This document shows, in pieces, positions 6,717-22,644 of a DNA stretch of 28,460 bases; the first letter of the stretch is position 1; every line of letters starts with the position of its first letter. This stretch comes from a virus. The DNA is taken from positions 1 through 28,460 of IMG/VR virus record IMGVR_UViG_3300028581_000186; one strand, written 5' to 3'. Position numbers and translations under genes: made by a program. The notes under the pieces were generated by a model. That model searched no databases and had not been told where the DNA came from. It was given only the letters and a program-made list of their open reading frames with translations.

Positions 6717-7112
6717 ATGTACCTCGATAAACTGCTCATGTTCAACGAGAGCGATGCGGCCATCACCGCCACCACCGCCTCGACCAACGTCATCGACCTT
6801 GGTGCCGCAGACCTTGGCAAGTCCGAGGAAATGGACATTTTCGTTCAGGTCACCGAGGCGTTCAACAACCTCACCAGCCTGGGCATCAAGGCTCAGACCG
6901 CCACCGATGCCGCGTTCTCCACGCCCATCGACCTTCCGGTGCAGGCCACTCCCCTGCTGGCCGCCCTTACCCTCAACAGCGTCCAGCTGCAGGTCTCCGT
7001 GCCCAAGGGCGTTCTGCGCTTCATGCGCCTGTATTACACCGTCACCGGCACCGCCCCGACCACTGGCAAGATTCGCGCCGGGCTCATCACCAACCGCCAG
7101 ACCAACGCCTAG
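6717..7112 (+). CDS. Bbp16-family capsid cement/decoration protein
   Basis: This 131-residue protein follows the capsid gene by 23 bases with a GAAGGAG ribosome site. The start MYLDKLLMFNESDAAI, the central SVIDLG-like segment (NVIDLGAADLG) and the C-terminal FMRLYYTVTGTAPTTGKIRAG match the pattern of Bbp16-type proteins, a beta-rich family that decorates and stabilises the capsid of BPP-1-like phages. It shows the same strong C-ending codon bias as the capsid gene. The call is from memory of the family pattern. Confidence 0.75.
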   Translation: MYLDKLLMFNESDAAITATTASTNVIDLGAADLGKSEEMDIFVQVTEAFNNLTSLGIKAQTATDAAFSTPIDLPVQATPLLAALTLNSVQLQVSVPKGVLRFMRLYYTVTGTAPTTGKIRAGLITNRQTNA

Positions 7113-7120
7113 GAGGCGAC

Positions 7121-7315
7121 ATGAACGCCCGCGTACGCTGCGTAACCACCTGCTACATCGACGGCTGCCTGTACGAGGCTGACAGGGAATACACCCTGAT
7201 GCTGCCCAAGGAGCATGGCCACTGGGAGCACTTCGACGTGCTTGAGGACATGGACGTCAAGAAGGGCAAGGGCAAGGGCAAGGACGCCCCTGCGGACGCA
7301 TCTGCCTCTGAATAA
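7121..7315 (+). CDS. Small hypothetical protein of the head module
   Basis: This 64-residue protein is preceded by a perfect AGGAGG eight bases after the cement gene. Residues 1-45 look folded (VRCVTTCYIDGCLYEADREY, with three Cys, and the segment HWEHFDVLED). The tail is a Lys/Gly repeat (KKGKGKGKGKD) followed by an acidic, Ala-rich end. Small proteins of this shape sit between the capsid and tail genes in related phages, but I cannot name a function. It is the last gene before a strong terminator, so it belongs to the head transcription unit. Confidence 0.7.
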   Translation: MNARVRCVTTCYIDGCLYEADREYTLMLPKEHGHWEHFDVLEDMDVKKGKGKGKDAPADASASE

Positions 7316-7322
7316 CTCTATC

Positions 7323-7354
7323 CGGGGCTGGGCTTCACCGCCTGGCCCCGTTTT
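7323..7354 (+). terminator. Rho-independent terminator after the head genes
   Basis: CGGGGC at 7323-7328 pairs with GCCCCG at 7345-7350. The stem continues through two G-T wobbles and GGC/GCC to about 11 pairs closing a six-base loop (TTCACC). TTTT follows directly. It lies between the head genes and the tail tube genes and would lower tail expression relative to the capsid. Confidence 0.85.
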
Positions 7355-7365
7355 AAGGAATGCCC

Positions 7366-7932
7366 ATGGCGAGTGTCGTCCAGATATGCAACCTGGCCCT
7401 GTCGAAGATCGGCAGCCCGCCCATCTCTTCACTCACCGAGGACAGCCGGGAGGCCGCTGCTTGCAGCATGATCTACGAGCCGCTGCGGGACGAGGTCTTG
7501 CAGATTCGCCCGTGGGCGTCCTGCACCAAGCGCGTGGCCCTGGCCATGCTGGACGAAGCTCCCGCGTTTGAGTTCACTGCCGCGTGGCAGCTTCCCAGCG
7601 ACTACCTTGATCTGGTGCGCCTGGGTGACACCGACGGCGCCGACATCAATTACCGCATCGAAGGGCGCGTGTTGCTCACCAACACCGAGACCGCCAACAT
7701 CATCTACATATTTAGGCAGGAGGACAGCGGCACCTATGAGCCGGTGCTGGTTGACCTCATCGCCAGCCGCATGGCCGTTGACCTCTCCATGACCGTGGCG
7801 GGCAGTGGCACCATGGGCCAGGCCTTGTATCAGGCCTATGAGCAGAAGCGCACCCGCGCCAAGAGCGTTGACGGGCAGGCCGTGGGCCAGCCGTCCTTCA
7901 CCTTCACCTCGCTCGTGGACGCGAGGCTGTAA
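7366..7932 (+). CDS. Tail tubular protein A (gp11-like adaptor)
   Basis: This 188-residue protein starts MASVVQICNLALSKIGSPPI, the typical opening of T7 gp11-like adaptor proteins (NLAL..IG...I.SL.E.S..A). It then has YEPLRDEVLQIRPWASC and WQLPSDYLDLVRLGD. The adaptor ring joins the portal to the nozzle. I chose the ATG at 7366 because AAGGA stands six bases upstream. An ATG two codons earlier (7360) overlaps that ribosome site. The stop overlaps the start of tail tubular B (TAATG). Confidence 0.88.
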   Translation: MASVVQICNLALSKIGSPPISSLTEDSREAAACSMIYEPLRDEVLQIRPWASCTKRVALAMLDEAPAFEFTAAWQLPSDYLDLVRLGDTDGADINYRIEGRVLLTNTETANIIYIFRQEDSGTYEPVLVDLIASRMAVDLSMTVAGSGTMGQALYQAYEQKRTRAKSVDGQAVGQPSFTFTSLVDARL

Positions 7933-10295
7933 TGGCGAAAGTCAGCCACCTTCAGGCCTCTTTCACCGCTGGCGAACTGTCTCCGCGTCTGTTTGGCCGG
8001 GTAGACCTCGCCAAGTACCAGACCGGCCTGGCCAAGTGCCGCAACATGGTGCTGATGCCCCACGGCGGCGTCAACCGGCGCAGCGGGACGCGGTTTGTCC
8101 ATGAAGTGAAGGACAGCACCAAGACCGTGCGCCTCATCGCGTTCGAGTTCAGCACCGTGCAGGCCTACATCTTGGAGTTCGGCAACCAGTACATGCGCGT
8201 CTACAAGGACGGCGGCATCGTGGTCAGCGGTGGCACGACGCCCTACGAGATCACCACCCCGTACCTTGAGGCGGACCTGCCCTCGTTGAAATTCGCGCAG
8301 AACGCCGACACACTTTTCATCGTGCACCCCAGCTACCAGCCGCGCTCTTTGAGCCGCACCGACCACACCGCGTGGGCGTTCACCATTCTGGACTTCGTGG
8401 ACGGGCCGTATCTGGATGAAAATATTGACCAATCGAAGACTATTACGCCCAGCGGCAAAGGCCAATACGTGGTCAACGGAACGTTTGACAACGACATCGC
8501 TGGGTGGAACGACATGAACGCGGGTTCAGGTGCAAAAGTTCAGTGGGACAGCATGTCCATGATGGATTTGATAGGAATAGTTGGCGGTTACGCCATGGCG
8601 CAGCAGACCGTAACCCTAACTGCTGCGAATGTAGAACACACCTTGGAATTTGAGGTGAAGAGCGGCCCTATTATAATGTGCATAGGAAGTACATCGTCTG
8701 GGAGTGAAATCTTAGCTGCCGTGCCCTATGAAAAAGGTGTGCATACAGTAAAATTTACCCCCACCGTGACTACAATATATCTGTTTTTCATGAACACCGC
8801 CAACGCCAGCCGGGCAATCGACAACGTGCGCATCAGTCGCCAGGAGAGCATCACGCTCACCGCGAACTTCGACTGCTGGAACGCTGGCCACGTAGGCGCG
8901 TTCTGGCGGCTCACCCATGGCGAATACACCGGCTACGTGAAGATCACGGCTTACACCGACGCCACGCATGTCACGGCCACCGTCATGGATGCCCTGGCCT
9001 CGACTGCTGCCACGTACAAATGGCGCGAAGGGGCTTGGAGCACCCACCAGGGATACCCCAGCGCGGTGGTTTTCCACCAGCAACGCCTGTTTTTCGCTGC
9101 GACTCCCAAGTCTCCGCAAACCGTATGGGGCAGCAAAACCCAGAAGTACGTTGACTTCACCATCGGCGTGGCGGCTGACGATGCCTTGAACATCACCGTC
9201 GCGTCGAACCAGGTGAACGCCATCAACTGGCTGGTCAGCAGCAAGTCGCTTGTGCTGGGCACCATCGGGTCAGAGTGGCGCATGGGCAGCGCGGATGGCT
9301 CCGACATGATCTTGCAGCCAGCCAACGCTTCCGCCGCCCAGGAGACCAACCACGGGTCACACCCGACGCTGCTGCCGATCCGCGCAGCCGGGCAGACCAT
9401 CTTCGTGCAGCGCAGCGGGCGCAAGATCCGAGAGCTTTCCTACGATTTCCAGACGAACGGCTGGGTGGCCCCTGACCTGTCGCTGCTGGCCGAGCACATT
9501 ACCGTGGGAGGCATCACAGACATCGCCTATGCGCAGGAGCCGGACTCCATCATCTGGATGGTGCGGGCAGACGGAGTGCTGCTGGGACTTACCTACAACC
9601 GCTCCGAGCAGGTGGTGGGCTGGCACTGGCACGATACGGACGGCCTGTTTGAGAACGTCTGCACGATCCACAATGGCGAACAGGATCAGGTTTGGGTGGT
9701 CGTCAAGCGCACCATCGGCGGCGTCACCAAGCGTTACGTGGAATACTTCACCGCGCCCTTCGTGGATCAGGACATTGAGGATGCCGTCTTCGTGGATTGC
9801 AGCCTGTCGTACTCTGGCACAGCGGCTACCACCTTCAGCGGCCTTGGGCATCTGGAAGGCAAGAGCGTGGACATCCTGGCCGGTGGGTCTGTCCGCACTC
9901 CCAAAACCGTCACCAGCGGGGCCGTTACCATCGCCAACTCTGCCACCAAGGCGGTCATAGGCCTGCCCTACGTCAGCGAGTTGCAGACCTTGAAGCCGGA
10001 GGCTGGCCAGGACGACGGCACGGCACAGGGGCACCTGAAGCGCGTCAGCAAGGCCACCCTGCGCGTGCATCGCAGTCTTGGCTATGAGGTGGGCGCGACC
10101 ACCGATAAGATGTTCCGCCCGCCGCACCGCAGTAACAACACCCCAATGGGCCAGGCTCCAGACCTCTTCACGGGCGACGAGAAGGTGGCCATCGAGGGGC
10201 GCTACGACTTCGGCGGGCAAATATGGGTGCGCCAGACGCAGCCGCTTCCGCTGACCGTGCTGGCCATCATCGCGCAGGTGGGCGTCAATGGCTAG
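7932..10295 (+). CDS. Tail tubular protein B (nozzle) with an inserted lectin-like domain
   Basis: This 787-residue protein starts MAKVSHLQASFTAGELSPRL and continues GLAKCRNMVLMPHGGVNRRS, the standard opening of gp12-like tail nozzle proteins. Later signatures are WSTHQGYPSAVVFHQQRLFF and VWGSKTQKYVDF. It forms the tip of the short tail. Residues about 176-303 (8457-8840) do not belong to the usual fold: they form a CBM4/9-like module placed at the point where homologues have a short linker before the AGHVGAFWRLTHG segment. The gene overlaps its neighbours at both ends (TAATG upstream, eight bases downstream). Confidence 0.88.
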   Translation: MAKVSHLQASFTAGELSPRLFGRVDLAKYQTGLAKCRNMVLMPHGGVNRRSGTRFVHEVKDSTKTVRLIAFEFSTVQAYILEFGNQYMRVYKDGGIVVSGGTTPYEITTPYLEADLPSLKFAQNADTLFIVHPSYQPRSLSRTDHTAWAFTILDFVDGPYLDENIDQSKTITPSGKGQYVVNGTFDNDIAGWNDMNAGSGAKVQWDSMSMMDLIGIVGGYAMAQQTVTLTAANVEHTLEFEVKSGPIIMCIGSTSSGSEILAAVPYEKGVHTVKFTPTVTTIYLFFMNTANASRAIDNVRISRQESITLTANFDCWNAGHVGAFWRLTHGEYTGYVKITAYTDATHVTATVMDALASTAATYKWREGAWSTHQGYPSAVVFHQQRLFFAATPKSPQTVWGSKTQKYVDFTIGVAADDALNITVASNQVNAINWLVSSKSLVLGTIGSEWRMGSADGSDMILQPANASAAQETNHGSHPTLLPIRAAGQTIFVQRSGRKIRELSYDFQTNGWVAPDLSLLAEHITVGGITDIAYAQEPDSIIWMVRADGVLLGLTYNRSEQVVGWHWHDTDGLFENVCTIHNGEQDQVWVVVKRTIGGVTKRYVEYFTAPFVDQDIEDAVFVDCSLSYSGTAATTFSGLGHLEGKSVDILAGGSVRTPKTVTSGAVTIANSATKAVIGLPYVSELQTLKPEAGQDDGTAQGHLKRVSKATLRVHRSLGYEVGATTDKMFRPPHRSNNTPMGQAPDLFTGDEKVAIEGRYDFGGQIWVRQTQPLPLTVLAIIAQVGVNG
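8457..8840 (+). other. CBM4/9-like carbohydrate-binding domain inserted in the nozzle protein
   Basis: Residues about 176-303 of the nozzle protein begin with the opening typical of CBM4/9 jelly-roll modules (VVNGTFDNDIAGWND). They continue with alternating beta-strand segments (QQTVTLTAANVEHTLEFEV, HTVKFTPTVTTIYLFFMN) and end with ASRAIDNVRISR, the typical CBM4/9 close. Bases 8540-8780 are visibly richer in A and T and use rarer codons (ATA, TTA, GTA) than the flanks. This suggests a transferred domain. Carbohydrate binding is inferred from the family pattern only. Confidence 0.65.
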
Positions 10296-16843: not shown

Positions 16844-19413
16844 TGGCAACCCGCTCCGAATGTCTCGACATGGTGAAGCGCGGTGGTGCTTCCGACGTTG
16901 AAGCCGCTGAGATCGTGGACATGGTGTTGGCCGAAAAGAAGCGCATCGAGGCCGAGGGCAGGATTGCCACGGCGGCGGACCTCGCCACCTTCGGTAGCAC
17001 CAAGGCCGAGCAGATGAAGCAGGCCGCAGCCATGCAGCGCAAGCACGCGGCCCTGAACGTGTTGGCGAGGGAGCAAATAGCCGGGCACCTGGAAAGCTGG
17101 GTCTTCCACGGCGGGGACATCGTCGAAGGGCTGATGGCCTACACGGTGGGCAGTTCCAAGCAGATCGAAGGCGCGAGGGCTTCAATTGGGGCCAAGGCTT
17201 CCGCAGTGCTCAAAGATTGGGCCGGTGGTGTGGTGGCGCGGGTTGAGAAAATCCCTGGCGCATTGCAGCTGATAAAGCAGGACCGTGGCTTCCTGGCCGA
17301 CGTTGTGCGCGAGATGCACGAAATCAGGCCGGACGGTAAGGTCGGTATCAGCGGTAACGATACCGCCCGCCAGGTGGGTGCCCTCCTGTCAGAGGCCGCA
17401 GAAATGTCCCGCGTCCGCCTGAACGAGGCCGGGGCGTTCATTGGCAAACTGGATGGATGGGTGCCGCAGGTGCATGACGAAGGGCGGCTTGTCAGCGCAG
17501 GGAAGGAAAAGTGGACAGAGACCATCCGCCCGCTGCTGGACATGGAACGCTCCTTTGAAGGGAAGACTCCTGAAGAGGTCAACACGATCCTGGGCGAGAT
17601 ATTTGAGAACATCGTCACCGGGCGAGATGCCACGGTATCGGCTGGGGAGAAAGGCCAGTTCATGGGGCCGCGCAACCTGGCCAAGAGCATGGGCCAGCAT
17701 CGCGTGCTGCACTTTGCTGACGCTGAATCATGGTTGAAATACCACGACGAATTTGGGCGTGGAAACGTGCTGGTCAACGTGATCCACCACCTTGAGGGCG
17801 CATCCCGCAAGGTGGCCCTGATGGAAGGACTCGGACCCAACCCTGAGGCCATGATGGTGTCGGTGATGGAAGAGGCCAGCCGCAGGGTGCGCGAGAATCC
17901 CGCCATGGACCCTGCCGACAAGGCGCAGGCCATCCAGAAGTTATCGCAGTCCTGGGATGGTGGTGGGAAGGTAAAGCAGGCCATGGACGTGCTCACGGGC
18001 AACGTGGGCAATCCGGTCAACCGCCAGATGTCGTCCTTCCTGTCCGGTGTGCGGGCCGTCCAGAGCATGGCGAAGCTGGGCGGTGCGGTCATCTCCTCAG
18101 TGACCGATGTCGTCACCATGGCCACCAACTACCGATACATGGGCCGGAACTTGTTTGAGGGCTACGCTGATGCGTTCCGCAACGTCATGGTGGGCCGTGG
18201 CAGCGAAGAGCAGCGCCAACTGGCCATGCACCTGGGGACGATCTTTGACGGCATCCTTGGCGACGTGATGGCCCGCATGAACGTGGAAGACGCACCAGTT
18301 CATGGTCGCATATCTTCCATGATGAACACCTTTTTCAAGGCGTCAGGCCTCAACCTCTGGACCGACGCGCACAAGGGCGGTTACGTGCGCGGCCTTTCAG
18401 CCTGGATCGGTGATCATGCCGGCCAATCCTTCGTCGAGTTGGCGGACCCGCTGCGCAAGGTGCTGGAGTACCACGGCCTGGGCGCTGAGAAGTGGGAAGC
18501 CATGCGCCACATGGTGCAGACAGCGGAGGACGGGAAGGCGTACATGGTCCCCCACATGGTTGACGCTGTACCTGACGAGGTGATGCGCCCCATGATTGCC
18601 GAGCGCATGGCTGCGGCAGGGAAGCGCGTCAAAGATGCGGATGCTCTCGCCAGCCACGAAGCCTTCCTGCTGAAAAAAGAGCGCGAGAAGCTGCGCACCG
18701 AGGTGATGGCCTTCTTCACTGACGAGACTAGCCACGCCGTGCTTGAGCCTGACTACCGCACGCGCATCAGGATGACGCAGGGGACGCGCCCCGGAACCAT
18801 CCTGGGTGAGGCCATGCGGTTCGTGATGCAGTTCAAAAGTTTCCCCATGACGCACGTGCAGAAGACTCTACAAGGCAGGCGCTTCGGTGTTGCCGGTTCC
18901 AACGGTATGGACGTTCCTGGCATCGTCCATTTTGCGGCTGCATCCATGATGTTTGGTTACGCAGCGGGGATGGCAAAGGATTTCGTGAAGGGCAAAGAGC
19001 CGCGTGACCCGGCGAAATGGGAGACATGGATGGCGGCGGCGGCACAGTCTGGTGGCCTGGGCATCTACGGCGACTTCTTGTTCGCCCAGAACGACAGGTT
19101 CGGCGGTGGGCCAACCGCCGCCGCAGCCGGTCCGCTGGTCGGGACTGCCGAGCAGCTTATCAAGATCGGTTCCAAGTCATTGAGGGGCGAAGCCGATGCG
19201 GCGGACTTCTTCAAACTGGGGATGGACAACACGCCATATATAAACCTGTGGTACACGCGGGCAGCGCTTGACTATCTGCTGCTCTACCACCTGCGCGAGA
19301 TGATGAGTCCTGGCACGCTTCGGCGCATGGAGAAGAACGCGAAGCAGGAATACAACCAAGAGTTTATCGCACCGCCTTCGAGAATTATCCGGCGCGGTGG
19401 CGGGTTCAGATGA
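16843..19413 (+). CDS. Large internal virion protein (gp16-like, C-terminal type)
   Basis: This 856-residue protein starts in the TAATG overlap, and AAGGTGGT serves as ribosome site. An in-frame ATG eight codons upstream lacks a site. It is mostly helical. A central hydrophobic, Gly-rich segment is SVTDVVTMATNYRYM after MAKLGGAVIS (about residues 404-430). The late region MRFVMQFKSFPMTHVQKTLQ, then HFAAASMMFGYAAGMAKDF, matches the pattern near the C-terminus of large podovirus internal core proteins (MQFKSFP). No lysozyme/transglycosylase motif is visible. It is the last gene of the ejection set. Its TGA is the first base-point of the 55-bp repeat that follows. Confidence 0.68.
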   Translation: MATRSECLDMVKRGGASDVEAAEIVDMVLAEKKRIEAEGRIATAADLATFGSTKAEQMKQAAAMQRKHAALNVLAREQIAGHLESWVFHGGDIVEGLMAYTVGSSKQIEGARASIGAKASAVLKDWAGGVVARVEKIPGALQLIKQDRGFLADVVREMHEIRPDGKVGISGNDTARQVGALLSEAAEMSRVRLNEAGAFIGKLDGWVPQVHDEGRLVSAGKEKWTETIRPLLDMERSFEGKTPEEVNTILGEIFENIVTGRDATVSAGEKGQFMGPRNLAKSMGQHRVLHFADAESWLKYHDEFGRGNVLVNVIHHLEGASRKVALMEGLGPNPEAMMVSVMEEASRRVRENPAMDPADKAQAIQKLSQSWDGGGKVKQAMDVLTGNVGNPVNRQMSSFLSGVRAVQSMAKLGGAVISSVTDVVTMATNYRYMGRNLFEGYADAFRNVMVGRGSEEQRQLAMHLGTIFDGILGDVMARMNVEDAPVHGRISSMMNTFFKASGLNLWTDAHKGGYVRGLSAWIGDHAGQSFVELADPLRKVLEYHGLGAEKWEAMRHMVQTAEDGKAYMVPHMVDAVPDEVMRPMIAERMAAAGKRVKDADALASHEAFLLKKEREKLRTEVMAFFTDETSHAVLEPDYRTRIRMTQGTRPGTILGEAMRFVMQFKSFPMTHVQKTLQGRRFGVAGSNGMDVPGIVHFAAASMMFGYAAGMAKDFVKGKEPRDPAKWETWMAAAAQSGGLGIYGDFLFAQNDRFGGGPTAAAAGPLVGTAEQLIKIGSKSLRGEADAADFFKLGMDNTPYINLWYTRAALDYLLLYHLREMMSPGTLRRMEKNAKQEYNQEFIAPPSRIIRRGGGFR

Positions 19414-19466
19414 TGACCCCCAGGATGTGCAGTCCCAGGGGCCGTCAATTCCTACCAGCTGTAGGT
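19412..19466. repeat. 55-bp direct repeat, left copy
   Basis: Bases 19412-19466 are identical to 23557-23611 (same orientation, 4,145 bp apart). Identity starts with GATGACCCCC and ends with GCTGTAGGT. The next 30 bases match at 24 positions. The non-coding part contains an imperfect hairpin (TGAC...GTCA outside, CCCC/GGGG inside, 19414-19447). The rest covers the last codons (TYSW, stop) of an antirepressor-like reading frame on the minus strand. The G at 19412 and the A at 19413 are within the TGA stop of the upstream gene. Confidence 0.95.
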
Positions 19467-19523
19467 TTGCAGCCTCTCGCCCTTGAATCTACCCTTCGGC
19501 ACTTCAAAATAAAATGCCGGGTG
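19452..19523 (-). pseudogene. Broken 3' end of an antirepressor-like gene
   Basis: Read on the minus strand, the frame from 19523 to the TAG at 19452 encodes HPAFYFEVPKGRFKGERLQTYSW after a TAG in frame; the last 13 residues match the end of the intact ORF6N antirepressor (KGRFKSERLQTYSW) with one change (G for S). Five of six base differences in this stretch are silent, so it was once coding. No start or ribosome site belongs to it, and the N-terminal part is gone. It is a remnant of a related cassette. A neighbouring minus-strand frame, open from 19648, may hold more of the remnant after a frameshift. Confidence 0.6.
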
Positions 19524-19617
19524 CTAGAAAACCGCCTGAGAGCGGCCCCAAGACTTTCCCCGAAGGTATTGTATGATCTTGGGACACCCGACACCGGGTG
19601 TGTAAACCAAAAGGCGC

Positions 19618-19644
19618 AAAAAATCCACGAATTTTCGGACGTGG
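19618..19644 (-). terminator. Minus-strand rho-independent terminator of the moron gene
   Basis: On the minus strand CCACG (19644-19640) pairs with CGTGG (19629-19625) around a ten-base loop, followed by A and six T (19623-19618). It lies 66 bases after the stop of the small membrane protein gene, so that gene has its own transcript end. Confidence 0.6.
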
Positions 19645-19709
19645 TCACCGTCTCAGGCTTGGTGTTTTCTAGGCACCGAAGGCAAGATACGGCGGGTGGA
19701 AATCAAATG

Positions 19710-19925
19710 TCAATAGGCACTTTTTCTTTTTTCGATGTTCTTTTTGATTCTCCAGCCCTGGAATTTAGAAAATGTCCAGGCGATAGAGAACAACAACGCA
19801 AACCCAATTATTATGGAGGCAACTTCTTCCAGCATGTTTTGAAGTGTGTACCCATGGAAGAAAGCGTACACCAACCCGGCCCCACCAAAGATAACGAATC
19901 CCCATATCCATTGGAATACGTTCAT
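19710..19925 (-). CDS. Small two-span membrane protein (moron)
   Basis: This 71-residue protein is read against the late genes. I chose the ATG at 19925 (MNVFQWIWGFVIFGGAG) because the frame upstream runs into the start of the fibre gene and a G-rich stretch (GGGGGGC) stands about ten bases upstream. Residues about 5-24 (QWIWGFVIFGGAGLVYAF) and 36-55 (VASIIIGFALLFSIAWTF) are membrane segments. The tail is strongly basic (RIKKNIEKRKSAY). It is A/T-rich, opposite in strand and has its own terminator, all marks of a moron. Such proteins often act in the host membrane, for example in superinfection exclusion, but nothing here proves that. Confidence 0.6.
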   Translation of the reverse strand: MNVFQWIWGFVIFGGAGLVYAFFHGYTLQNMLEEVASIIIGFALLFSIAWTFSKFQGWRIKKNIEKRKSAY

Positions 19926-19977
19926 GATATTATGCCCCCCATTTCTCCCCGCGTAACCCCATGGAGGAAATAACGCA

Positions 19978-21300
19978 ATGACCATCGCCACGCAGACAAA
20001 CAAGGTTCTTTACTCAGGCTCTGGCCTGACGGTCTACCCGTACACGTTCAAGGTGTTCTCGGCGTCCGACATCGCGGTGATCCGCCGGGCCGTTGCTGGC
20101 ACTGAGACCACGCTGACGCTGACAACCGACTACACGGTGTCCGGTGTCGGATCAGACGCGGGAGGCAACGTCACGCTGGTGGGCACGCAGGCATCCAGCC
20201 CCCCGGCCACGGGTGAAAAGCTGCTGGTGAAGCGCCTGGTGCCGCTGACGCAGGACACCGACTGGCAGGACAACGACAATTTCCCTGCTGCTGTGCTTGA
20301 GGACGCCGTGGACCGCACGGTATGCATCGCCCAGCAGTTGCAGGAGCAGATTGACCGCTGTTTCAAGGTCGCGGACACCAGCACTGCTGCCGTCATAGAC
20401 CCTGCGCAGGTGGCCATCGACGCGGATCGTGCTGCTGTCTCCGCAGGTGAGGCATCGGCATCGGCCATCGCGGCGGCTGCTTCTGCTTCGTCCCTGGACA
20501 CGTCGTCATTCATGACAAAGGCCATCCTGTCCAACGCTGGGAGCATCATTTACGGCAGCGCAGCGGCGACCCCGGCGAATCTTTCTGCTGGTGCTGACGG
20601 GGAAGTGCTCACCCTGGTGAGCGGCCTGCCCTCCTGGGAGGCTGCCGCTGGTGGTACTTCCAAGTGGACTGACCTTGTAGGTTCGACTGATTTCGCAACC
20701 ACGGCGGTATCCACCAGCACCGTTACGATGGTGACTGACCAGACTGCCACTATCAAAGTGGGCATGGCCCTCAAGTTTACGTTGAGCGGGACCACCTACT
20801 ACGCCATCTGCACGGCCATCACCTCTTCGCTCCTGACCATTGCAGGTCCGCCCCTCACCACCACGGCCTCTGCCTTGACTGCCCTCTCCTACGGCTTGAT
20901 CCCCCCCTACGTGGAGCGCATCCAGATACCCGGCTACTGGGCTGCAACGGCTGACACGGCCATGCTCGTCAATCAGATTGGCGTGCCTTACGTCTGGCGT
21001 GGCTCCAAGTCTTACCTTGTCCAGATTGGGGCGTACACCCGCACGACTGACTCAGGGACAAACAAACCCAGGCTTAACGCCAGGATTGGCAGCACAACCA
21101 CTGATTACGTGTCCACAAGCAACTCCAACGCTGGCATAGAGACTACGGCTTCTTCAACGTGGTATAGGACTGTAGTGGACATTTCCTCTGCCAAGTATTC
21201 AGTGAATTATGGTGATGTTGTGGAACTCAAGACTGCGGCAGAGGGCGGGAATGATGATGCAAGTGATCTGGACGTTGAACTTGTGTTCGTGCAGGAGTAG
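19978..21300 (+). CDS. Tail fibre/tailspike protein with T7 gp17-like N-terminus
   Basis: This 440-residue protein follows GGAGGAAATAACGCA. Residues 1-135 fit the particle-binding domain of T7 gp17-like fibres: TNKVLYSGSGLTVYPYTFKV, then DIAVIRRAVAGTETTLTLTT and LVKRLVPLTQDTDWQDND, ending AVDRTVCIAQQLQEQIDR. Residues 145-180 form an Ala-rich linker or coiled coil (AAVSAGEASASAIAAAASAS). The remaining 250 residues are Thr/Ser-rich beta structure without a motif I know. It attaches to the tail and reaches toward the host surface. Codons from about 21040 become richer in A/T, matching the next gene. Confidence 0.82.
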   Translation: MTIATQTNKVLYSGSGLTVYPYTFKVFSASDIAVIRRAVAGTETTLTLTTDYTVSGVGSDAGGNVTLVGTQASSPPATGEKLLVKRLVPLTQDTDWQDNDNFPAAVLEDAVDRTVCIAQQLQEQIDRCFKVADTSTAAVIDPAQVAIDADRAAVSAGEASASAIAAAASASSLDTSSFMTKAILSNAGSIIYGSAAATPANLSAGADGEVLTLVSGLPSWEAAAGGTSKWTDLVGSTDFATTAVSTSTVTMVTDQTATIKVGMALKFTLSGTTYYAICTAITSSLLTIAGPPLTTTASALTALSYGLIPPYVERIQIPGYWAATADTAMLVNQIGVPYVWRGSKSYLVQIGAYTRTTDSGTNKPRLNARIGSTTTDYVSTSNSNAGIETTASSTWYRTVVDISSAKYSVNYGDVVELKTAAEGGNDDASDLDVELVFVQE

Positions 21301-21303
21301 CCA

Positions 21304-22644
21304 GTGATTCGCTCTGATCCGTCTACGCTTAATGCGTCACAGACCAAGTTGTTCATACGAGGGCACAACGCCACAAAGGATGACTCCCCAGGAAATAAGA
21401 CCATCACCAATAACGGCGGCGTCACTGTAGTTGATGCGCCCGGTGGACATCCGTATGCGCGGAGTGCCGGGTATTTCGACGGTGCAAACGCCTATCTTAC
21501 AGCCACAGATAGCCCAGATTGGCAGCTTGGTGGCGGCACAGGCGCATTTACAATACGTGGGTGGGTTTACATAGACTCATTTGCGAACTATAGATGTATC
21601 GCAGGGCAGCTGGATAGCGGGACTCTGTTTTGGAACTTCATCATTTATGATGGAACAACGATTAGGTTTGAAAACTACAGTGGTGGAGTGGACACTGTGA
21701 TAACGGCAGCACATGGATTTGCCCTTAACACCTTTAACCTCGTTGAACTTGTAAGAATAGACAACGGGAATACCTCAGCATCGTGGCGCATATTTGTCAA
21801 CGGAGTCGCTAAGTCTTTGACATTGGTAAGCGGAACATGGAACCATACAACGGCTGATTGCGCTTCCGTCCTTGGTGTAGGCATCCGTGGAAATAACAAC
21901 GCATATCCCATGTCTGGGTATATGTGCGATGTCGAAATTGCTAACACGGCGAGACATACGGCTGATTACACTCTCCCCACCGCCCCCCTCGTAGCAGACG
22001 CAAACACCAAGCTCCTGCTGCCGATGGACAAGTACCTGACTCCAACCACGTTCACGGACATAAGCCCTTCGCCAAAAACGATCACGCGTAATGGAAACGC
22101 TGTGCAGGCGTTGTTGCCGCCTGGGAAGAAGGCTTTGAGTTTTACAGCAGCCAGTGGTCAGTATCTCAGTACAACGAACTTGACCGGATTTGATTATGGA
22201 AGAGACTACACAATGGACTGCTGGGTAAAGCTACCCACCACATTTCAGACAGGACATCTCATGGGACAGATTGATAACGGGTCAGTTGGCCCTGCAATTG
22301 CAATGTGGGTGCACTCAAACGGAGACTACTTATACGTACAGCAATTCAATGTGGCTGGTGGATTTGATATAGCTGGAATTGTTTACACAGTACCAGTGAC
22401 ACTTAAAAATGTTTGGATTCACCTCGCTACGGTAAGATATGGCAACTTGTTGTCACTATATGTGAATGGAGTATTGGTTAGGTCAGGAACGTGTGCCGGA
22501 ACGTGGGTGAACCCAGCAACATTCTTTGGTGTTGGATCAGTATATAACAGTGCGCCCAGTAATGTTAAGGCGGACATGATGAATACAAGATACTCTTCCT
22601 TCGCCCGCTGGACAAAGAACTTCATCCCGCCAACCAAGTATTAG
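21304..22644 (+). CDS. Double LamG/concanavalin-like lectin protein, probable receptor-binding fibre
   Basis: This 446-residue protein starts at GTG (21304), with GGAG seven bases upstream and only three bases after the fibre stop. It holds two LamG-like beta-sandwich units. The first (about 40-220) has SAGYFDGANAYLTATDSPDW, FTIRGWVYIDS, and WRIFVNGVAKSLT. The second (about 265-430) has LSFTAASGQYLSTTNL, YTMDCWVKLP, and LSLYVNGVLVRSG. Both end with an 'ARHTADYTLPT' or 'FARWTKNFIPPT' strand. Such domains bind glycans or proteins, so this may be the part that chooses the receptor. Codon use is clearly more A/T-rich than the head genes, suggesting recent exchange. Confidence 0.8.
   Translation: MIRSDPSTLNASQTKLFIRGHNATKDDSPGNKTITNNGGVTVVDAPGGHPYARSAGYFDGANAYLTATDSPDWQLGGGTGAFTIRGWVYIDSFANYRCIAGQLDSGTLFWNFIIYDGTTIRFENYSGGVDTVITAAHGFALNTFNLVELVRIDNGNTSASWRIFVNGVAKSLTLVSGTWNHTTADCASVLGVGIRGNNNAYPMSGYMCDVEIANTARHTADYTLPTAPLVADANTKLLLPMDKYLTPTTFTDISPSPKTITRNGNAVQALLPPGKKALSFTAASGQYLSTTNLTGFDYGRDYTMDCWVKLPTTFQTGHLMGQIDNGSVGPAIAMWVHSNGDYLYVQQFNVAGGFDIAGIVYTVPVTLKNVWIHLATVRYGNLLSLYVNGVLVRSGTCAGTWVNPATFFGVGSVYNSAPSNVKADMMNTRYSSFARWTKNFIPPTKY

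What the first reader, a model, noticed from the sequence alone, without database searches (positions are those of the whole stretch)
8457..8840. Carbohydrate-binding-like module inserted in the tail nozzle protein
The nozzle protein has about 128 extra residues opening VVNGTFDNDIAGWND and closing AIDNVRISR, the signature ends of a CBM4/9 jelly roll, in a region of distinct base use. A glycan-binding domain on the nozzle would give the phage a second surface contact besides the fibres.
Basis: partly seen in the sequence, partly recalled or inferred. Interest (0 to 1): 0.55.

Follow-up and report, generated by a model that had tools for sequence, protein, structure and literature searches.

The report
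Sugar-binding-like domain in phage tail nozzle
The protein that forms the exit nozzle of this short-tailed phage carries an extra domain shaped like known sugar-binding modules, placed where it probably sits at the tip of the tail, and related phages carry the same kind of domain in other loops of the same protein, which suggests that the nozzle itself can help the phage hold on to its host.

Summary
Window ORF 7932-10295 (787 aa) is a podovirus tail nozzle; residues 178-304 (8463-8843) are an extra domain absent from 126 of 178 full-length relatives sampled. AlphaFold2 folds it alone at pLDDT 94 as a nine-strand jelly roll. First fold match is a porphyran-binding CBM (Z 14.9), tied within 1 Z with a phage tailspike domain and insecticidal-toxin domains; further CBM families follow at 12-14. 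By sequence the window copy does not match Pfam CBM_4_9 and three close relatives fall just short, so it is 'CBM4/9-like', not filed in that family. The GC3 dip is real here but absent from L002-L004. A core tree places this site's insert in the window's own small clade, inside a starred group whose other 31 rows lack it. By comparison with T7 gp12 the site lies in the nozzle tip domain (inferred). The same domain family occurs in two other loops of related nozzles, which also take other modules (E1_FCCH; rarely CBM_5_12, Laminin_G_3). Best reading: an accessory adhesin on the nozzle, working like CBM inserts in 'evolved Dit' proteins. Glycan binding is untested. New variant of a known kind.

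The parts
7932..10295 (+). Tail nozzle protein (tail tubular protein B / T7 gp12 type), 787 aa
   Evidence: phrog_376 E 6.8e-230; phmmer to 8ck1_A 'Tail Nozzle' E 2.2e-128; AF2 model pLDDT 86.5, VIA Z 42.6 to 8ck1_A and 27.0 to T7 8e4g; no Pfam Phage_nozzle match
8463..8843 (+). Inserted CBM4/9-like jelly-roll domain, aa 178-304
   Evidence: absent from 126 of 178 nozzles and at this site in 6; AF2 alone pLDDT 94.4, nine strands; first fold match 8xmz porphyran-binding CBM Z 14.9
8445..9041 (+). 'Slot B', aa 172-370, holding the native nozzle tip domain plus the insert
   Evidence: gap between conserved core segments s2 and s3; equated with the T7 gp12 tip domain (loop of propeller blade 3) by inference from PMC6702177 and the whole-chain fold match
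8409..8786 (+). Low-GC3 segment, aa 160-285 (GC3 0.52)
   Evidence: change-point scan, 60 shuffles
8223..8243 (+). 'Slot A', aa 98-104: empty in the window; holds the same domain family, E1_FCCH or other modules in relatives
9744..9830 (+). 'Slot C', aa 605-633, between propeller and platform: empty in the window; holds a second CBM-like copy or another module in some relatives
7360..7932 (+). Upstream tail protein, presumably the tail adaptor (tail tubular protein A type)
   Evidence: phrog_394 'tail protein' E 2.7e-52; Pfam 'Tube' only E 0.0056, 17.1 bits, below its cut-off 22.3; role inferred from position
19978..21300 (+). Tail-fibre-type protein (the phage has a separate fibre)
   Evidence: phrog_1640 'tail protein' E 4.4e-31 over residues 1-122, plus several phrogs named tail fiber or tail spike protein
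21304..22644 (+). Protein with a Laminin_G_3 lectin-like domain, probably virion-borne
   Evidence: PF13385 E 3.9e-20; phrog_701 'virion structural protein' E 1.7e-19; GC3 0.50

Best explanation
[quoted passage not shown] Six copies would sit around the end of the tail (nozzles of this class are hexamers; not shown for this phage). They most likely act as an accessory adhesin that holds the tail tip against a surface polysaccharide (capsule, EPS or LPS) while the separate fibre makes the main contact, before the nozzle opens. Shown here: insertion, predicted fold, relatives, purifying selection. Inferred: gain rather than loss, position at the tip, surface exposure, glycan ligand, effect on adsorption.
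For: Insert against collinear relatives. AF2 of the domain alone pLDDT 94.4, pTM 0.87. VIA: 8xmz porphyran-binding CBM Z 14.9 (118 aligned, rmsd 2.0); CBA120 tailspike TSP4 5w6h Z 14.0; CBM4-2 4bj0 Z 13.8; hyaluronan-binding module 4d0q Z 13.5; CBM16 2zey Z 13.4. Foldseek has the same first hit, E 9.7e-07. The domain recurs in nozzles: of the best 80 loci kept by the domain-profile scan (122 relatives, capped), 49 have it in a nozzle ORF; of 77 full nozzles among the best 80 of 96 loci of a scan built on the nozzle, 10 have it. Other carbohydrate- or adhesion-type modules sit in slot A of relatives: CBM_5_12 E 1e-07 (L236) and Laminin_G_3 E 1.3e-30 (L198). dN/dS about 0.10-0.14 between three close copies (dS 0.41-0.51, dN 0.040-0.069). 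In T7 the tip domain is the most distal part and protrudes toward the outer membrane (PMC6702177, passages). A nozzle (TTPB of phage OWB) binds host cells and a host protein, Vp0980 (PMC7241545, passages). CBM inserts in evolved Dit proteins promote adsorption to EPS-bearing hosts (PMC10688798, passages).
Against: No ligand or binding residue was identified. The window copy gives no Pfam CBM_4_9 match at E up to 1; L002 and L131 give none either, and L003, L004 and L179 stay below the cut-off (21.9, 24.2, 24.9 against 25.9 bits). The fold is not specific to sugar binding: Cry1 toxin domains (Z 14.2-14.3) tie with the best CBM, Vip3 domains score 12.1-14.0, promeprin 12.0, and ephrin-receptor ligand-binding domains appear in Foldseek. 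In the full-length model the start of the domain is poorly placed (aa 180-189 pLDDT under 50, blocks 191-220 about 60), so its orientation is unknown. No record of the 50,697 in the phage collection has a tblastn match to the domain.
Confidence: 0.58

Rival explanations
1. A structural decoration: the jelly roll stiffens the tip ring or keeps neighbouring nozzle subunits closed, and binds no ligand.
For: The most frequent insert type in the slots is E1_FCCH-like (Pfam in 10 of 33 nozzles; the largest insert cluster has 57 members and its representative matches E1_FCCH), for which I recall no binding role in phages. Ig-like decorations of virions are common (PMC13320782, passages).
Against: The domain is missing from 126 of 178 nozzles and is found in three different loops, which fits an added surface function better than one fixed subunit interface.
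Confidence: 0.22
2. A protein-binding adhesin: the jelly roll recognises an outer-membrane or surface protein, not a sugar.
For: The nozzle of phage OWB binds the membrane protein Vp0980 (PMC7241545, passages); the fold also occurs in protein-binding domains such as ephrin receptors.
Against: The first fold match and many others are carbohydrate-binding modules; slots in relatives hold CBM_5_12 and Laminin_G_3.
Confidence: 0.12
3. A dock for another virion protein such as a second fibre or the Laminin_G-domain protein encoded at 21304-22644.
For: The window encodes a fibre-type protein and a Laminin_G_3 protein; nozzles carry a fibre dock in T7 (PMC6702177, passages).
Against: The T7 fibre dock lies between propeller and platform, not at the tip; no co-variation of insert and fibre genes was tested.
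Confidence: 0.05
4. An ordinary, ancestral nozzle domain that was lost many times.
For: Counts of changes cannot tell gain from loss, and slot A carriage is the rule in one large clade (22 of 22 rows).
Against: At this site the label needs only 2 changes on 117 rows, and the window's clade (3 rows, support 100) sits in a starred group of 34 whose other 31 lack it.
Confidence: 0.03

Closest known systems
T7-type tail nozzle (T7 gp12, Carin1 8ck1_A, LME-1 9efk_M; PHROG 376)
   Same: Whole chain and fold: VIA Z 27.0 (8e4g), 42.6 and 36.4
   Different: The window nozzle has an extra 127-aa jelly roll in the tip region. Carin1 has other extra segments in slots B and C; its slot-B segment gave no significant Pfam match
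CBM4/9-type carbohydrate-binding modules (CBM4-2, CBM16, CBM61; first match 8xmz porphyran-binding CBM)
   Same: Predicted fold (Z 12.3-14.9); NGTFD...W opening and DNV close
   Different: Own sequence does not match PF02018; ligand unknown; carried by a virion protein
Evolved Dit (evoDit) of skunaviruses (PMC10688798, passages)
   Same: A CBM-type domain inserted in an otherwise collinear tail-end protein; promotes adsorption there
   Different: Long-tailed phages of lactococci, another hub protein; here no adsorption data
Nozzle as host-binding protein: phage OWB TTPB (PMC7241545, passages)
   Same: The nozzle itself touches the host
   Different: Ligand there is a membrane protein; no inserted domain is mentioned in the passages read

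Membership tests
T7-type podovirus tail nozzle | Full-length match to the nozzle protein family (PHROG 376, 'tail protein') | tested here: met
   phrog_376 E 6.8e-230 over 1-787; phmmer 8ck1_A 'Tail Nozzle' E 2.2e-128
T7-type podovirus tail nozzle | Nozzle fold with beta-propeller | tested here: met
   VIA Z 42.6 to 8ck1_A; propeller proteins align over about 37-612
T7-type podovirus tail nozzle | Hexameric ring on the adaptor | not testable with these tools
   no complex was modelled
Pfam Phage_nozzle (PF25675) | Match to the Pfam model | tested here: not met
   window protein: no match at E up to 1; 8 of 33 nozzles of alignment A4 match, best E 9.5e-10. It is not filed in this Pfam family; nozzle identity rests on PHROG, PDB and fold
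Pfam CBM_4_9 (PF02018) | Score at or above the curated cut-off of 25.9 bits | tested here: not met
   window copy: no CBM_4_9 match at E up to 1; L003 21.9, L004 24.2, L179 24.9 bits; L002 and L131 none
Pfam CBM_4_9 (PF02018) | Beta-jelly-roll fold of the family | tested here: met
   4bj0 (CBM4-2) Z 13.8, 1gui (CBM4) Z 13.4, on a predicted model
Pfam CBM_4_9 (PF02018) | Binding of a carbohydrate through a cleft or surface with aromatic residues | not testable with these tools
   aromatic or His in all four slot-B copies compared (window, L002, L003, L179): 179, 185, 192, 205, 236, 240, 266, 283, 286; their exposure is unknown
Evolved Dit | Carbohydrate-binding-type domain inserted in a collinear hub protein | tested here: met
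   insert, CBM-type by predicted fold only
Evolved Dit | The host protein is a distal tail protein (Dit) | tested here: not met
   it is a nozzle; so it works like an evoDit but is not one
Evolved Dit | Insert promotes adsorption | not testable with these tools
   needs phage and host

The most novel reading that the evidence does not exclude
The podovirus nozzle is a general display scaffold: its tip domain and two further loops repeatedly take in adhesion-type modules (CBM4/9-like, CBM5/12, laminin-G lectin, perhaps discoidin-like and glycine-rich ones, and FCCH), apparently sometimes with one domain nested in another. The DNA gate itself would then be a second, independently evolving host-range determinant, and glycan binding at the tip could be coupled to gate opening.
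Probability: 0.42. Interest if true: 0.7.

Novelty: new variant of a known kind. Interest (0 to 1): 0.45.

Why it matters
Host contact of short-tailed phages is usually credited to fibres and spikes. A nozzle that carries exchangeable binding modules would put an adhesin on the DNA gate itself. It would offer a testable link between surface binding and genome release, and a place to look when fibre genes alone do not explain host range. The slot map gives a simple comparative assay for podovirus genomes.

Tried and rejected
Tried without result: tblastn of the domain alone against 50,697 phage records gave no match at E up to 10. An HMM of five copies against solved structures gave only chance-like hits, best E 0.43. 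Pfam on the window domain gave only A2M_recep E 0.21. The window copy was therefore placed by fold, not by sequence.

Considered and dropped: that the low-GC patch proves a recent swap of the domain. Four-fold sites differ no more in the patch than in the rest for window against L002 (21/37 against 145/252); they differ more for window against L003 (24/32 against 138/241; 183 of 5000 shuffles as high) and L179 (25/34 against 136/239; 241 of 5000), and less for L003 against L179 (17/60 against 141/327); sites are near saturation. Nei-Gojobori dS for window-L002 is 1.95 in the domain against 0.99 and 1.08 in the flanks, which points toward a swap. I call it inconclusive.

Considered and dropped: that Carin1's slot-B segment is a chitin-binding module; it looked so by eye, but Pfam gave no significant match. 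That the domain is uniquely variable: it is less alike to the window's (54-60%) than residues 1-177 (70-74%), but residues 701-787 are as variable in L003 and L179 (54, 51%). An alignment-only slot survey mis-set gaps; I replaced it by HMM anchors. The domain-only tree has few columns and cannot place slot-B copies among slot-A copies.

Literature: the Carin-1 structure paper is not held, so its text was not read. Of ten paper searches, eight listed no paper whose title or displayed start of abstract describes a CBM in a nozzle; two searches gave the evoDit and OWB papers. Lists were capped (15 of 39, 15 of 17, 12 of 126, 12 of 31), and the library holds open-licence papers only. Eight papers were seen as passages (PMC13320782, PMC11440229, PMC10575957, PMC6702177, PMC11784390, PMC10688798, PMC10684548, PMC7241545); none was read whole.

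Full report
What was claimed.

The protein. ORF 7932-10295 (787 aa) is a nozzle. PHROG 376 matches the whole chain (E 6.8e-230). phmmer finds the solved Carin1 tail nozzle 8ck1_A (E 2.2e-128). A full-length AF2 model (pLDDT 86.5, 33-row alignment) aligns with 8ck1_A at Z 42.6, with LME-1 at 36.4, with T7 gp12 entries at 25.4-27.0 and with P22 gp10 at up to 18.8. The Pfam Phage_nozzle model does not match the window protein, although it matches 8 of 33 relatives. Upstream lies a tail protein (presumably the adaptor), before it Bbp16-type and GP7-type capsid-region genes; downstream come internal virion proteins, a fibre-type protein and a Laminin_G_3 protein.

The insert is real. Relatives at roughly 38-46% identity align on both sides of residues 178-304 and skip them. 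I anchored nozzles on four conserved core segments and measured the gaps between them. From 258 loci I obtained 189 distinct nozzle ORFs (identical ones collapsed, near copies kept), 58 of which carry the domain. Of the 178 with all four anchors, 126 lack it, 43 have it only in slot A (after about residue 98), 6 only in slot B (the window's site) and 3 in slots A and C. Sampling matters: loci were picked for the domain. In the search built on the nozzle in genome contigs (best 80 of 96 loci), 10 of 77 full nozzles carry it, 9 in slot A and 1 in slot B. In the search with the window protein (best 80 of 172), 3 of 80 do, all in slot B.

Where it came in. On a core tree of 117 representatives that leaves the slots out, slot-B carriage needs 2 changes. 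The window, L002 and L179 (the six slot-B ORFs were reduced to four representatives) form a clade of support 100, inside a starred group of 34 rows whose other 31 lack the domain; the second case is L131. The count cannot tell gain from loss; one gain in the window's clade is the simplest reading. The five slot-B copies of that clade group together in the domain tree (99), which otherwise resolves little.

The fold. AF2 of the domain alone with 13 copies gives pLDDT 94.4 and nine strands. VIA ranks 8xmz, a porphyran-binding CBM, first (Z 14.9, 118 aligned, rmsd 2.0, 20% identity). Rows within 1 Z are ties: Cry1 toxin domains (14.2-14.3), the CBA120 tailspike TSP4 and a Vip3 domain (14.0 each) tie with it. 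CBM4-2 has 13.8, a hyaluronan-binding module 13.5, CBM16 13.4, CBM61 12.7. Foldseek has the same first hit (E 9.7e-07) and the tailspike second. By sequence the window copy does not match PF02018; L003, L004 and L179 reach 21.9, 24.2 and 24.9 bits against a cut-off of 25.9, and of ten copies scanned only one from a non-nozzle phage protein (L085) passes it, at 28.7. I therefore call it CBM4/9-like by fold and do not file it in the Pfam family.

Where it sits. Propeller proteins align over about residues 37-612. In T7 gp12 a loop of blade 3 leads out to the tip domain, which is the most distal part and protrudes toward the outer membrane (PMC6702177, passages). Slot B, residues 172-370, is the matching excursion.

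The slots hold other things too. Slot A is occupied (50 or more residues) in 95, slot B (100 or more) in 78 and slot C (70 or more) in 38 of 178 nozzles (sums). The 156 inserts that are not this domain fall into 39 clusters; the largest has 57 members (41 in slot A, 5 in B, 11 in C) and its representative matches E1_FCCH. Pfam at E up to 0.01 on one representative of each cluster found E1_FCCH in 4, CBM_5_12 in 2 (one above and one below its cut-off), Laminin_G_3 in 1; F5_F8_type_C and a glycine-rich domain each matched 1 below their cut-offs; at least 24 of the 39 have no match. So the claim of many adhesion modules rests on few named cases. In five nozzles (L084, L202, L210, L215, L222) the domain profile matches slot A in two separate stretches; in L084, the one I read, the two ends of one domain flank about 160 other residues.

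Selection and base use. Three close slot-B copies show dS 0.41-0.51 and dN 0.040-0.069, so the domain is kept by purifying selection, as are its flanks. Identity to the window is lower in the domain (60, 54, 56, 54% for L002, L003, L004, L179) than in residues 1-177 (70-74%), but the C-terminal 87 residues are as variable in L003 and L179. The low GC3 of the window copy is not seen in L002-L004, and tests for a recent swap disagree.

How it probably works. A nozzle has been shown to bind host cells: OWB TTPB binds the membrane protein Vp0980, and adding it blocks adsorption (PMC7241545, passages). CBM-type inserts in the Dit of skunaviruses let phages adsorb to and infect EPS-bearing hosts (PMC10688798, passages). 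By analogy, a ring of CBM-like domains at the nozzle tip would hold the tail against a surface polysaccharide. Shown: insertion, predicted fold, recurrence, selection. Inferred: tip position, exposure, sugar ligand, effect on adsorption. A merely structural or a protein-binding role remains open.

Novelty. CBM inserts in tail hub proteins are known, and domain shuffling in phage proteins is described (PMC10684548, passages; the words nozzle, tail tubular and tail tube occur 0 times in its text). I found no description of CBM-type inserts in nozzles in the searches named under Tried and rejected, but the lists were capped, the library is partial and the Carin-1 paper was not held. Hence new variant of a known kind.

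Noticed in passing
L016, L032 and other loci: 33 of 80 nozzles found with the window protein have 20 residues or fewer between core segments s2 and s3, so they seem to lack the tip domain altogether (the 80 include near copies). Their hosts were not determined.
   Followed up: partly
L084 residues about 109-396; also L202, L210, L215, L222: In L084 the CBM-like domain in slot A is split by about 160 residues, apparently another domain nested inside it; four more nozzles have two separate profile matches in slot A but were not read.
   Followed up: partly
L093, L098, L102: Nozzles with two copies of the domain, one in slot A and one in slot C.
   Followed up: partly
L179; also L183, L192, L219, L220: The nozzle 63% identical to the window's lies in a 245-kb Desulfovibrionaceae MAG contig, and nearby domain-less relatives come from Desulfovibrio and Halodesulfovibrio records: a hint at the host.
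   Followed up: no
window 21304-22644: Protein with a Laminin_G_3 domain and GC3 0.50, next to a fibre-type gene; a second lectin-like candidate.
   Followed up: no
window 19410-19973: 187-aa ORF with low GC (0.486) and no PHROG or Pfam match at E up to 0.01, between a virion protein and the fibre-type gene.
   Followed up: no
L004 near 6923-7351: The nozzle reading frame of this contig is broken near its end (two overlapping ORFs), a sequencing error or a real break.
   Followed up: no
L183 4169-4651: A Desulfovibrio nozzle relative without this domain has a different insert in slot A that resembles a CBM by eye but has only a weak Pfam match (AlcCBM31, E 0.053).
   Followed up: no
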